Positions 5,209 through 20,584 of a DNA stretch of 20,584 nt are shown in pieces; the stretch's first letter is position 1; the number at the start of each line of letters is the position of its first letter. The position numbers and the translations under genes are program-made. The notes beneath the pieces were generated by a model. That model did not search any database. It was not told where the DNA came from and was given only the letters and a program-made list of their open reading frames with translations. The stretch comes from a virus. The stretch is taken from positions 1 through 20,584 of the IMG/VR virus record IMGVR_UViG_3300042879_004153; one strand, written 5' to 3'.

Positions 5209-5769
5209 ATGGCGCGCGCACTTACCGCCGGCATGCTCGCCGCCATGGCCACCGGCAATCTGCGACCGCTGATCCTCTACGAGGGCGAGTTCGCTGGCGG
5301 CACCGTGCGCCTGTTCTCCGGCCACGGCTCGCTGGTCTGGAACGGCAACACCTTCACCGGCAGCGGCCAGATGCTGCGGATATCCGCCATCCAGGAAGTC
5401 TCGGCCCTGCAGGCAATCAACTTCACCATCTCGCTCAACGGCGAGCTGCCGGCGCTCATCCAGGTGGCGCTGGCCCAGGTGCGCCGCGGCAAATCCGGCA
5501 GCGTCTGGCTTGGCCTGCTCGACAGCAACAACGCGCTGATCGCCGATCCTTTCTTGTGCTTCAAGGGCCGCGCCGACAAACCGGACATCGTGCCCGACCC
5601 GTCGCACACCGTGATTTCCGTCGCCTACGAATCGCGCCTGATCGACGCCTCGCGCCGGCGCGAGCGGCGCTACACCTCGGAAGACCAGCAAATCGATTTC
5701 CCGGGCGACAAGGGCTTCGATCAAGTGCCCAGCCTGCAGGACACACAATTCACCTGGGGGCGGCGATGA
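5209..5769 (+). CDS. Minor tail protein (tail hub/adaptor-like)
   Basis: A 186-aa protein. The ATG at 5209 is chosen because GGAGG lies 10 bases upstream and the previous gene stops 2 bases before it. It begins MARALTAGMLAAMATGNLRPLILYEGEFAGGTVRLFSGHGSLVWNGNTFTGSGQMLRIS and ends RRRERRYTSEDQQIDFPGDKGFDQVPSLQDTQFTWGRR. The final block is a common ending of minor tail proteins encoded between the distal tail protein and an NlpC/P60 peptidase in siphophages, roughly the place of lambda gpL. The stop overlaps the next start (ATGA). A structural role at the tail tip is inferred. Confidence 0.65.
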   Translation: MARALTAGMLAAMATGNLRPLILYEGEFAGGTVRLFSGHGSLVWNGNTFTGSGQMLRISAIQEVSALQAINFTISLNGELPALIQVALAQVRRGKSGSVWLGLLDSNNALIADPFLCFKGRADKPDIVPDPSHTVISVAYESRLIDASRRRERRYTSEDQQIDFPGDKGFDQVPSLQDTQFTWGRR

Positions 5770-6188
5770 GGCGCGACGGATGGGAATCACGGCTCGCCGC
5801 CGTGATCGAAGCCGCCGCCGGGCGGCCCTACGTGCTGGGCGAGAACGATTGCCTGCGCCTGGCTTGCGCCGCCGTCGAGGCGCTGACCGGCGTCGACTTC
5901 TGGCCGCGCTTTAGTGGAAAACGCGGCTACAAAACCAAGCGGCAGGCGCTGGTGACCATCGCCAAGATCGCGCCCTCACTGGGTGAAGCAGTGACGGCCA
6001 CGCTCGCCGTGTCGCCAGCGCCGACTTTCTCGGCCCTGCGCGGCGACCTGCTGCTGTACCGCGACGAGCAGGGCGAAGACCATCTGGGCGTCTGCGTCGG
6101 CCGCGACGTAGTGCTGATGGCCGCTGAAGGACCGCTCACCGTCGGCATCGAGCATGCCGGCCTGCTGTGTTCGTGGAGGATCGGCTGA
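5766..6188 (+). CDS. NlpC/P60-like tail peptidase (DUF6950-like)
   Basis: A 140-aa protein starting MRRDGWESRLAAVIEAA. The first conserved block, PYVLGENDCLRLACAAVEALTGVDFW, carries the candidate nucleophile Cys29. The second, DLLLYRDEQGEDHLGVCVG, carries the candidate His106, an NlpC/P60-type arrangement like the C-terminal part of lambda gpK. In tails such proteins sit at the tip and probably cut peptidoglycan during entry. Residues 81-89 (AVSPAPTFS) between the two blocks are encoded by a 27-bp sequence also present in the chaperone gene, possibly an inserted repeat in a loop. It is shorter than gpK because the Mov34-like domain is absent. It overlaps its neighbours on both sides. Confidence 0.75.
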   Translation: MRRDGWESRLAAVIEAAAGRPYVLGENDCLRLACAAVEALTGVDFWPRFSGKRGYKTKRQALVTIAKIAPSLGEAVTATLAVSPAPTFSALRGDLLLYRDEQGEDHLGVCVGRDVVLMAAEGPLTVGIEHAGLLCSWRIG

Positions 6189-16908: not shown

Positions 16909-17355
16909 CTAGAACGGAATGTCGTCTTCGAAGTCGTTGAAGTTGCCGCCCGTCGCCGCCGGGGCGGGTGCGGCGCTCTGTTCCGGGCGGCTGGCTGCTG
17001 GTGCGGCGGCCGCCCCTTCCGGTTTGCTGCCGAGCATCTTCATTTCATTGGCGACGATCTCGGTGGTGTAGCGGTCGGTGCCTTCCTTGTCCTGCCACTT
17101 GCGGGTGCGCAGTGCGCCCTCGATGTAGACCTGCCGGCCTTTCTTGAGGTACTGGCCGGCGATCTCGGCGAGCTTGCCGAAGAACACCACGCGATGCCAT
17201 TCGGTGGCTTCCTTCTTCTCGCCGGTAGCTTTGTCTTTCCAGTTGTCGGTGGTGGCGATCGTGATGTTGGTGATCGAGTCGCCGTTCGGGGTGTAGCGCA
17301 CTTCTGGATCGCGGCCGAGGTTGCCGACGAGGATGACCTTGTTGACGGATGCCAT
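16909..17355 (-). CDS. ssb: Single-stranded DNA-binding protein
   Basis: A 148-aa protein starting [87 protein letters not shown]. This is the complete OB fold of bacterial-type SSB. A Pro/Ala-rich linker leads to the acidic tip DFEDDIPF, which binds partner proteins. The start at 17355 overlaps the TGA of the parB-like gene; an extension to 17385 adds residues with no SSB character. It protects and organises single-stranded DNA in phage replication and could assist cDNA processing by the co-transcribed reverse transcriptase, which is inference. Confidence 0.95.
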
Positions 17356-19208
17356 CAGGTATTTGCTCCTGTCGGAAATGGCCACGCGGCCATGGGTTTA
17401 ACCGGCGCAGCCGGTTCGTTCGCCGGCAACGCCGGCGCTGGATTTGCCTTTGCTTTGGCTTTTTTCGCAGCGGGTTTCTTCGCGGGGCTTTGGGCCTTCG
17501 CCGGCGCAGCCGGGGGCGCGCTTGACGCTGGCGCTTGCGCAGCATTGGAAGGGGGAGAAACGGGTTTCGCGGCCTTGGTTTTTGCAGTTTTTGGCTGTTC
17601 GCGCAGGGTCTCGACGTCGATGCCGAGGCGGGCGGCCTGGGCGAGCAGCAGGGTGGGTTGTGGCTCGATGGTGCTGTTGAATGCCCATGGCGCGACCCAG
17701 GTATCCTCGACCAGGGCGATGTCGGTCAGGAACAGCCACAGCGCGGGCATGGCGAGCGTGGCGAAGAAGTCGGTGAGCACCTTGATTTCGACTTCTTCGC
17801 CATTCGTATCGGCTGAAAGATCGAGGTTCCACAGCTTCATCATTTCGTCGGTGCCGCGGCCGCCGTTACCGAGCTCGTGCCGGAACACTTCCATGACGAT
17901 CGGGCGCAGGTCGGTCTCGTCGAAGGTGCCGGCGGCGAAGCGCGCGCCGAGCTTGAGGCGGATTTCCTGAAACAGTTTTGCGCGCCAGGTGTTCTCGGTT
18001 TTGGCTTTGGTTTCGCGCTCGGCCTGGTCGCGCTGGTGGTTTTTGTCGGCGCGGTCGGTCTTGCCGGTAGGCTTGCCGATGCCGGCCTTTTTCAGCGCGA
18101 TCTCCAGTTGGCGGGTATCGACAGCTTCGATGAAGACCTTCTTGCGCGGGTCTTCAACCAGCGTGACGGCGGGGGCGGCCTTGCCGAGGATCTGGGCATA
18201 GGTGCGGTGGTCTTTGTCGTCGTGGCAGACAGCATCGAGGCGTGCCAGGTTGTGCGCGCGCAGGCTGAAGTCGCCGTTGTAGGTCATGTCCGCGGCTTCT
18301 TTGCCGGTGACGACTTCTTTGCCGCTTTGTTCGGCGAGCGTCTTGAGGCGCAGGAAGTTGGCGTCCCTCTTGTTCTGGAAGCATGGCGGGTCGGTGCAGA
18401 CGTTTGGACTGCCGATGTCGGCGGCCAGCAGCAGGTCGTTGCCGCTGCGCTTGGGGCAGGCGTCGCAACTGCCGGCTTTCTTGATCAGCTCCGCGTCGTC
18501 GGTCTTGAAGGTGGCGTCGTCAAGGTCGAGCATGTAGTGGTTCTGGATGTGCTCGGCGGCGCGACGGGTGGACATAACTTCCTTTTGCCAGTCCGGTGTG
18601 GTGATTTCGGTGGCGGCTTTCATCTGCAGCGTGGCGCCAGGAATGCGCGCGATCAGCAGGGCGGTGCTGGCGGTGAGCTTGCCGGCATAGAACAGATCCC
18701 GCGCGGCCGGCACCAGGGCGAGCAGCTTGAGGCGGGCATAAATGTAGGCGCGGCTTTTGCCGACCTTGTCGCCCAGGGTGTCGGCGGTGTAGTCGTGGAA
18801 CTTCAGCAAACGCTCGTAGCCTTCGGCCTCTTCCAGCGGGTGCACGTCTTCGCGCTGCAGGTTTTCGATCACCTGTAGCTCAAGCACCTGCTTGTCGTTC
18901 AGTTCGCGGACGATGACGGGCACGGTGGCCACGCCGGCGATCTGGCTGGCGCGCCAGCGACGTTCGCCACAGGCTATTTCGTGCGCATTCATGTCGGCCA
19001 TGTCGCCGAAGGTTTTGCCCGGCGGCATGGCCATGCCGACCTGCCACTTGCGCACCAGGATCGGCTGGATGACGCCGTGTTCCTTGATGCTTTCGGCCAG
19101 CTCGGCGAGCTTGGCCGGGTCAAAGTGTTTACGCGGATTGGTCGGCGAGGGCAGCAGGCTGGAGGGCGGCAGCAGTACGGCCGCGGGGAGGGTTTCGGGG
19201 GCATTCAT
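17355..19208 (-). CDS. ParB/Spo0J-like DNA-binding protein (long form)
   Basis: A 617-aa protein. The start at 19208 is chosen because the ATG overlaps the reverse transcriptase stop (ATGA), with AGGAGA upstream; a longer frame exists but runs over the upstream gene. The N-terminus has the ParB box ([40 protein letters not shown], then [24 protein letters not shown]), followed by [24 protein letters not shown] and a helix-turn-helix with [15 protein letters not shown] Cys cluster near residues 243-267 (SCDACPKR...[14 protein letters not shown]) follows, then a long helical domain and a Lys/Ala/Pro-rich tail. It is about twice a typical ParB. A role in DNA binding or phage replication is inferred; no parA gene is in view. 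Confidence 0.85.
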
Positions 19209-20536
19209 GTGCGATGTTCTCCTGGTGAGTGGGTGCGGTAGGTCTTGGTGAGGTCGCCCTTGATCGTGTGACCGCGATCGCGGAGCAGGTTGGCCAGCCT
19301 TGCGCGGTCGGCGTGGCTGTGGGTGGTTTGCCGCAACAGGCCGAAGTAGCTGTTGGCGGTGTGGAACAGATCCTCGGCCGGCATCGTGGCCACGCGACGC
19401 ATGGCGTCGCGGTAGGTGCGGCGGCGCAGGGTGCGATGCCAGGGGCGGATCACATGGCCGACGAAGTCGATGCCACGGTCGATGGGTTGCAGGATGGTCT
19501 TGCGCGGGTTGATGGCGAGCTGCAGGTGCGCCGGCAGCCATGCCTCGATGTCGGTGCGGGCGGCATTCAGCCAGTCGGCGGACTCGTGCAGCAGCACCAT
19601 GTCGTCGACGTAGCGGATGTAGTGCCGCGCCTTCAGCTCGTGCTTGATGTGTTGGTCGAGCGCGTCGAGCAGGACGTTGGCGAAGAACTGGCTGGAGAGG
19701 TTGCCGATCGGCAGGCCGTGGTGCGCGTCCTGGTTGAAGAGGCTCTTGTGCGCGGGAACGCGCGCGAACTCGTCGGGGCGGCCCTGGGTGACGACATCGC
19801 GGCGCGGGTCATGGAACAGGATGTCCAGCGCGAGTTGGCGCCACCAGGGCTCGGCAATGCGTCGGGCGAGCAGTTGGCCGACGATGCGCTTGTCGATGCT
19901 GACGAAGAAGTTGGCGAGGTCGAGCTTGAGGTAGTGGCCGTGCCGGCTCCAGTTCTGTGTCTGGCTGCGGACCTTGGCTTCAAGCCGCTGGGCGGCGTAG
20001 AGCGTGCCGCGCCCTGGGATGCAGGCGCAGGAATCGGCGATGAAGCTGGCTTCGAAGCGCGGACCGATCTTGCGGTAGAGCAGGTGGTGCACGATACGAT
20101 CGCGGAACTGCGCGGCCCAGACTTCGCGCACCTTGGGCCGGGTGATGACGAAGCAGATCGACGGACCGGGGCGGTAGGTGCCGCCGGTCAGCTCGTCGTG
20201 CAGTGTGGCGAGATTGTGTTCGAGCAGCTGCTCGAAGGCCAGCGCGCTGGCGCTGTTGCGTTTGGTGCGCCGACAGGCGAGGTAGGCCTCGACCAGGTCG
20301 GTAAACGAAAAATCAGCCGGGTGGCGGTAATCATCTGCGGACGGAGCGGGCGCGGCACTGGTTGTTGATGTGGTTGTTGTTCTGGTTGCCGTTGTTGAAG
20401 TTCTGATACCAGGCGTAGCTCGCGTCGGAGGCGTCGTTGTCTCGCTATCGATGTCGCGCTGCCGATTGCTCGGCAGGGAAACTGCGCCGGACCGTTCCGG
20501 CGCAGTTTCCCTGCCGGCGGTCTCCGTGGTGCGCAT
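19205..20536 (-). CDS. Diversity-generating retroelement reverse transcriptase
   Basis: The reverse transcriptase core begins near 20332 and runs about 375 residues. Key blocks are KLDLANFFVSID (first catalytic Asp, near 19924-19890), HHGLPIGNLSSQFFANVLLDALD (IGNLSSQ at 19708-19688) and HYIRYVDDMVLL (YVDD at 19612-19601), followed by INPRKTILQPIDRGIDFVGHVI. The IGxxxSQ motif replacing QGxxxSP is the mark of DGR reverse transcriptases. No ATG, GTG or TTG occurs in frame between the core and 20536, so the given start makes the N-terminus run through the template repeat in another frame (a Thr/Ser-rich stretch); a non-canonical start is possible. The frame is open to the right edge. It would copy template RNA with errors at adenines. 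It is coupled to parB by ATGA. Confidence 0.85.
   Translation of the reverse strand: MRTTETAGRETAPERSGAVSLPSNRQRDIDSETTTPPTRATPGIRTSTTATRTTTTSTTSAAPAPSADDYRHPADFSFTDLVEAYLACRRTKRNSASALAFEQLLEHNLATLHDELTGGTYRPGPSICFVITRPKVREVWAAQFRDRIVHHLLYRKIGPRFEASFIADSCACIPGRGTLYAAQRLEAKVRSQTQNWSRHGHYLKLDLANFFVSIDKRIVGQLLARRIAEPWWRQLALDILFHDPRRDVVTQGRPDEFARVPAHKSLFNQDAHHGLPIGNLSSQFFANVLLDALDQHIKHELKARHYIRYVDDMVLLHESADWLNAARTDIEAWLPAHLQLAINPRKTILQPIDRGIDFVGHVIRPWHRTLRRRTYRDAMRRVATMPAEDLFHTANSYFGLLRQTTHSHADRARLANLLRDRGHTIKGDLTKTYRTHSPGEHRT
20331..20445 (-). repeat. DGR template repeat (TR)
   Basis: Read on the minus strand in a frame different from the reverse transcriptase, this stretch gives NDASDASYAWYQNFNNGNQ, then NNNHINNQCRARSVRR and a stop at 20333-20331. 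The Trp-Tyr-Gln-Asn-Phe core, dense AAC codons and the final CRARSVR are the hallmark of template repeats for C-type-lectin-fold (FGE-sulfatase/DUF1566-like) variable proteins. An in-frame TAG just upstream shows it is not the end of a normal gene. The adenine-rich part lies at 20353-20412 and the GC-rich initiation-like end at 20331-20352. The exact limits need the variable repeat, which is not in the window. Confidence 0.85.
20460..20475 (-). other. Small competing hairpin with GCAA tetraloop
   Basis: On the minus strand TGCCGA/TCGGCA closes a GCAA loop, a GNRA tetraloop. Its 5' arm shares the last bases of the neighbouring 21-bp hairpin, so the two stems compete or only partly coexist. It lies just before the template repeat. 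Confidence 0.5.
20471..20516 (-). other. 21-bp hairpin beside the DGR template repeat
   Basis: Two perfect 20-base arms (20472-20491 and 20496-20515) flank a 4-base loop, with a further C-G pair outside. No T tract follows on either strand, so it is not an ordinary terminator. It lies about 30 bases upstream of the template repeat on the transcribed strand. It may fold at the 5' side of the template RNA or end an upstream transcript. Confidence 0.75.
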
Positions 20537-20584
20537 GGCGGTGCCCTTGTGGGGCAGCGGCGTGACCAGATTGATTGAGCGCAC

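What the first reader, a model, noticed from the sequence alone, without database searches (positions are those of the whole stretch)
19205..20536. Phage-borne diversity-generating retroelement: reverse transcriptase plus template repeat
Seen: a reverse transcriptase with IGNLSSQ in place of QGxxxSP and a YVDD active site, directly preceded by an Asn-codon-rich stretch (20331-20445). That stretch reads ASYAWYQNFNNGNQ...NNQCRARSVRR and a stop in another frame. Known: DGRs pair such a reverse transcriptase with a template repeat whose adenines are mutated during copying into a variable repeat of a target gene, often a phage tail protein. Inference: this phage diversifies a surface or tail protein.
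Basis: partly seen in the sequence, partly recalled or inferred. Interest (0 to 1): 0.9.

Follow-up and report, generated by a model that had tools for sequence, protein, structure and literature searches.

The report
Phage mutator with swapped RNA layout
The window holds part of a real gene-diversifying retroelement of a phage; its relatives rewrite small lectin-like proteins rather than tail proteins, and its template RNA is laid out the other way round from the textbook case, which suggests a different way of starting the copying step.

Summary
A diversity-generating retroelement (DGR), correctly spotted. The RT (19205-20536, minus strand) falls in the DGR clade, and the Asn-rich stretch is the template repeat (TR, ~20333-20435). 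The variable repeats (VRs) and avd are not in the window: the contig ends just before them. In 77 of 80 RT-selected prophage relatives one or more VRs are present, with 1955/3935 template adenines changed against 12/6025 other bases. Two near-identical cassettes differ at 41 of 3000 bp, 39 of them inside the two VRs, so the family is active.

The "tail protein" inference is not supported: targets are stand-alone ~120-200 aa C-type-lectin (Lcl_C/DUF1566) proteins in the early/recombination region.

What is unusual is the RNA. BPP-1 has avd-TR-structured spacer-RT. Here the order is avd-structured RNA-TR-RT. The structured element is Rfam's uncharacterised RT-15, 5' of the TR; the TR lies inside the RT reading frame, and no nucleotide-level constraint is seen 3' of it. 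An unpaired RT-15 hexamer (AAUCUG) pairs with the TR 3' end (CAGAU); the pairing covaries across 227 loci and follows the TR, not the VR. I propose that RT-15 does the job of the BPP-1 spacer from the 5' side, a retron-like geometry: inferred, not shown.

The parts
19205..20536 (-). DGR reverse transcriptase ORF, 443 aa; residues 1 to about 68 are encoded across RT-15 and the TR, the conserved RT domain follows directly
   Evidence: open frame conserved in 40 of 41 relatives
19688..19708 (-). IGNLSSQ motif (DGR form of QGxxxSP)
19601..19612 (-). YVDD catalytic motif
20333..20435 (-). template repeat (TR), about 103 nt; 5' limit set by TR/VR homology in relatives, so approximate
20333..20337 (-). 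TR 3' end CAGAT, proposed to pair with the RT-15 hexamer
20433..20584 (-). Rfam RT-15 RNA (RF03018), model positions 38-192, 5' part cut off by the contig end; holds the RT start codon
   Evidence: 115.1 bits, E 9.5e-27
20472..20515 (-). 20-bp perfect hairpin inside RT-15
20567..20572 (-). RT-15 unpaired AATCTG, complementary to the TR 3' end
20534..20536 (-). conserved ATG, probable RT start
   Evidence: same start annotated in Magia with an RBS

Best explanation
This is a DGR of a temperate phage, cut off by the contig end so that its avd and VR target genes are missing. In the intact family one operon runs VR target gene(s) - avd - RT-15 RNA - TR - RT. SHOWN by sequence: adenine-specific TR-to-VR transfer in relatives, stand-alone lectin-fold targets, RT-15 5' of the TR, TR read through in the RT frame, and conserved, covarying complementarity between an RT-15 hexamer and the TR 3' end. 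INFERRED: RT-Avd binds RT-15; the RT-15 hexamer holds the TR 3' end near the active site; cDNA starts there and copies the TR towards its 5' end with errors at A; the cDNA replaces the VR of small lectin-fold proteins. RT-15 would thus do from the 5' side what the BPP-1 spacer does from the 3' side.
For: DGR: RT clade support 100/100 against group II; best solved relative 8ub7, E 3.4e-38, next 7.5e-12; BPP-1 brt E 9e-37. VRs: the three closest relatives carry them 0.6-3 kb upstream of the TR; 77/80 RT-selected prophages, A 1955/3935 against 12/6025 non-A. Activity: Haboob vs L306, 41 differences in 3 kb, 39 in the two VRs, 38 at template A. RNA: RT-15 in the window and 7/7 relatives and, in 299 Pseudomonas genomes, all 26 above-cutoff hits lie beside this RT. 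Synonymous-site identity is 2.0-2.8 times expectation over RT-15+TR and falls to about 1.1 after the TR. Pairing: 227 loci, double changes at pairs 2, 4, 5 reached in 3 of 5000 shuffles and over pairs 2, 4, 5, 6 in 0 of 5000; where TR and VR ends differ at positions 1-5 the leader fits the TR only 228 times, the VR only 28.
Against: No experiment. The pairing is 5-6 bp; several loci break one pair without a compensating change (a Pseudomonas group has C at TR position 4). Covariation counts are few (5 cells at pairs 2, 4, 5) and the loci are related, so shuffles overstate significance. RT-15 also contains the RT start and could be a translation control element. The absence of an element 3' of the TR rests on synonymous conservation only. 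The window itself shows neither VR nor avd.
Confidence: 0.68

Rival explanations
1. An ordinary BPP-1-like DGR: the spacer function lies 3' of the TR inside the RT coding sequence, and RT-15 is a 5'-UTR element that only controls RT translation or ends cDNA synthesis.
For: RT-15 contains the RT start codon and a Shine-Dalgarno-like AAGG; BPP-1 ends cDNA synthesis at a motif upstream of the TR (PMC12875486).
Against: Synonymous conservation drops to background right after the TR; the conserved RT domain begins within a few codons of the TR end, leaving no room for an intergenic spacer; the RT-15 hexamer covaries with the TR 3' end, which a pure translation element does not predict.
Confidence: 0.2
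2. The RT-15 hexamer is a guide that pairs with the VR target DNA, like the exon-binding sites of group II introns.
For: The commonest VR end, CAGATT, is also complementary to AAUCUG; in L016, L153, L161 and L123 the VR fits the leader better than the TR does.
Against: Across 427 VR instances, where VR and TR differ at positions 1-5 the leader fits the TR only 228 times against the VR only 28 times.
Confidence: 0.05
3. A retron or other non-DGR reverse transcriptase next to a chance Asn-rich stretch.
For: Phage annotations often call these genes retron-type RT.
Against: RT clade, IGNLSSQ, TR/VR pairs at 39 and 77 loci in two separate sets, recent adenine-restricted divergence, Avd next door.
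Confidence: 0.02

Closest known systems
BPP-1 DGR of Bordetella phage (mtd-avd-TR-Sp-brt)
   Same: RT family, Avd, adenine-specific TR-to-VR transfer, C-type-lectin fold target, gene order target-avd-...-RT
   Different: BPP-1 has its structured spacer (Rfam Phage_DGR) 3' of the TR, a hairpin after the VR and a tail-fibre target; here the structured RNA is 5' of the TR, the TR lies inside the RT frame, no perfect stem of 7 bp or more follows the VR in 38 of 39 cases, and targets are stand-alone proteins
DGR of Burkholderia phage Magia
   Same: Same RT family (66% identity), RT-15, TR inside the RT frame, lectin-fold targets; its annotators already noted Avd and possible DGR targets
   Different: Myophage of Burkholderia; the window is a siphophage fragment with a lambda-like J protein
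Rfam RT-15 (RF03018)
   Same: The window and every relative tested match it
   Different: The library copy gives it no function; here it is tied to a DGR template RNA
Retrons (msr-msd-RT)
   Same: Order of structured RNA, then template, then RT on one transcript (PMC8867640)
   Different: RT clade, Avd, TR/VR homing and adenine mutagenesis; no msDNA features tested

Membership tests
Diversity-generating retroelement | RT in the DGR clade, with IGxxxSQ in place of QGxxxSP | tested here: met
   outgroup was group II introns only
Diversity-generating retroelement | TR with a VR near-copy differing at template adenines | tested here: met
   Met in relatives of 60-90% RT identity; in the window itself no VR, contig truncated
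Diversity-generating retroelement | Avd or another accessory gene | tested here: met
   In relatives only: bAvd PF22296 E 6.8e-15 in L004, PHROG 'Avd protein of DGR'; outside this contig
Diversity-generating retroelement | VR at the C-terminus of a C-type-lectin-fold protein | tested here: met
   In relatives: pLDDT 96; Lcl C-terminal domain, E 5e-5
BPP-1-type DGR RNA | Structured spacer RNA 3' of the TR, between TR and RT | tested here: not met
   RT-15 lies 5' of the TR
BPP-1-type DGR target | Hairpin/cruciform just downstream of the VR | tested here: not met
   38 of 39 VRs lack a perfect stem of 7 bp or more within 70 nt
BPP-1-type DGR RNA | cDNA primed by an adenine of the structured RNA | not testable with these tools
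   needs biochemistry
Retron | msr-msd RNA giving msDNA, retron-clade RT | not tested
   No retron RT was in the tree; the NCBIfam retron model scores far below its cut-off (52.7 against 235 bits)

The most novel reading that the evidence does not exclude
A lineage of DGRs has a permuted template RNA: the RT-recruiting, cDNA-initiating structured RNA sits 5' of the template, as in retrons, holds the template's 3' end by base pairing, and the template doubles as coding sequence for the N-terminus of the RT. The orphan RNA family RT-15 is that element.
Probability: 0.55. Interest if true: 0.75.

Novelty: new variant of a known kind. Interest (0 to 1): 0.62.

Why it matters
It gives a function to an orphan structured RNA family, shows that DGRs do not all use the BPP-1 layout, and links DGR and retron RNA topology in a directly testable way. 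A compact cassette whose structured RNA, template and RT lie on one transcript would also help DGR engineering. The stand-alone, early-region lectin-fold targets ask what, other than a tail fibre, a phage gains by hypervariation.

Tried and rejected
VR inside the window: none. VR-guide idea for the RT-15 hexamer: rejected. RNAalifold's alternative pairing of UCUGGU with ACCAGA inside the TR: not adopted, because the Haboob TR reads ACACGA there (read by eye). Spacer hidden in the RT coding sequence: no synonymous signal. Searches for a paper tying RT-15 to DGRs found none in the open library, but the paper I recall as describing the RT-n motifs is not held, so prior recognition is not excluded. 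Counts inside the search pattern were set aside as biased.

Full report
OBSERVATION. The ORF 19205-20536 (minus) is a reverse transcriptase with IGNLSSQ and YVDD. The Asn-codon stretch is real, ends in NNQCRARSVRR*, and lies in a different frame from the RT. It has no second copy in the window. The window is a whole 20,584-base virus record, with phage tail genes on the left (tape measure, lambda-J-like), an integrase and a ParB-like gene.

IT IS A DGR. In a maximum-likelihood tree the RT sits with BPP-1, BalMu-1, Lagaffe, ANMV-1 and VP58.5 RTs, split from group II intron RTs with 100/100 support. The best match among solved structures is 8ub7 (labelled only 'Reverse transcriptase'; I take it to be the BPP-1 enzyme), E 3.4e-38, against 7.5e-12 for the next. 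The three closest relatives, 86-88% identical over the query, carry VRs 0.6-3 kb upstream of the TR; the best-aligned VR of L002 differs from its TR only at adenines (14 of 14), and those of L003/L004 at 14-15 adenines and 3 other bases. Among IMG/VR contigs fetched by a TR/VR pattern, and counting only positions outside that pattern, 603/1472 template adenines are changed against 1.0-1.7% of other bases. Among 80 bacterial genome loci fetched by RT alone (mostly beta-proteobacteria and Pseudomonas), 77 have at least one VR and 72 have two or more; adenines changed 1955/3935, other bases 12/6025 (windows were chosen to have at most three non-A mismatches, so the second figure is a floor).

IT IS ACTIVE. 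Haboob and the IMG/VR locus L306 differ at 41 of 3000 bases of the cassette; 39 lie in the two VRs, 38 of them at template adenines, and 2 elsewhere.

TARGETS. 137 distinct VR proteins are mostly 116-206 aa, those tested match Lcl_C (formerly DUF1566) below its cut-off, and one folds with high confidence (pLDDT 96) like the Legionella Lcl C-terminal domain and C-type lectins. In the complete genomes of Magia, QDWS and Haboob the VRs lie with recombination, repressor and avd genes, none in a tail gene. Magia has a contractile tail, Haboob and the window have siphophage-type tail genes, so the same cassette serves unrelated tails. The tail-protein inference is therefore not supported; whether the targets decorate virions is unknown.

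THE RNA. Rfam RT-15 matches 20584-20433 (minus), cut at its 5' end by the contig, and all seven relatives tested. In BPP-1 the Rfam Phage_DGR RNA lies 3' of the TR, and in BalMu-1 (and weakly VP58.5) RT-14 lies 3' of the TR. In this family the order is reversed: RT-15, then TR, then the RT domain. In 299 Pseudomonas genomes every above-cutoff RT-15 hit (26) is beside this RT; the four sub-threshold hits are not.

TR INSIDE THE RT FRAME. In 41 of 41 loci the RT frame is offset by one from the TR coding frame; it is open through the TR and RT-15 in 40 (stops upstream of the TR, by frame: 51, 2, 71), usually back to a conserved ATG (window 20536), and TR-to-RT spacing varies only in multiples of three. 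Synonymous codon identity is about twice expectation or more from that ATG to the TR end and falls to background immediately after. So the nucleotide-level signal covers RT-15 and the TR, not a 3' spacer.

PAIRING. The Rfam consensus leaves AAUCUGG unpaired. It is complementary to the last five or six bases of the TR, CAGAU(U). Over 227 distinct loci, pairs 1-4 are kept in 98% or more; changes on both sides occur at pair 2 (L024, a synonymous change in the RT codon), pair 4 (L194, L238, L269) and pair 5 (L156), and at pair 6. Shuffles reach this in 3 of 5000 (pairs 2, 4, 5) and 0 of 5000 (pairs 2, 4, 5, 6); slid partners pair in 21-50% of cells against 90%, though the +3 slide gives nearly as many double changes (17 against 20). 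Relatedness is not controlled in the shuffles. I then tested whether the hexamer might instead target the VR, because a few loci hinted at it; over 427 VR instances it follows the TR (228 to 28). A set of loci found through Rfam rather than RT shows the same pattern, with a Pseudomonas group mismatched at pair 4.

MECHANISM. In BPP-1 the spacer recruits RT-Avd and its internal adenine primes cDNA at the TR 3' end (PMC12875486); by sequence, BPP-1 AGGUGGU, next to the adenine that I recall as the primer, can pair with AUCACCU near the TR 3' end. The simplest reading here is that RT-15 plays this role from the 5' side, which is the order of a retron (PMC8867640). Priming itself is not shown.

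MEMBERSHIP AND NOVELTY. It meets the features that define a DGR, partly through relatives, and fails two BPP-1 features (3' spacer, VR hairpin), so it is a DGR but not of the BPP-1 RNA type. Magia's annotators had noted a DGR. I found no held paper on RT-15 in DGRs; the source I recall for RT-15 is not held, so priority cannot be judged.

Noticed in passing
L107:1283-1538: BalMu-1 has a TR/VR pair and Rfam RT-14 directly 3' of the TR, so orphan RNA family RT-14 also looks like a DGR spacer RNA.
   Followed up: partly
L101 (Aeromonas caviae conjugative plasmid), about 5535-6157: A DGR on a conjugative plasmid, whose VR lies at the end of a ~4000-residue Ig-like domain protein; an IS30 gene separates TR and RT.
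   Followed up: no
L004:10205-11313: The RT is split into two frames and may be inactive or a sequencing error.
   Followed up: no
L002:15697-16021: Six 42-nt-spaced tandem repeats downstream of the ParB-like gene.
   Followed up: no
window 17355-19208 (-): A ParB-like gene overlaps the RT stop (ATGA) and follows the RT in L002 and L004 too, so it may be in the same operon.
   Followed up: no
L098, L172, L177: Up to four VR targets served by one TR, some 3-5 kb away.
   Followed up: partly
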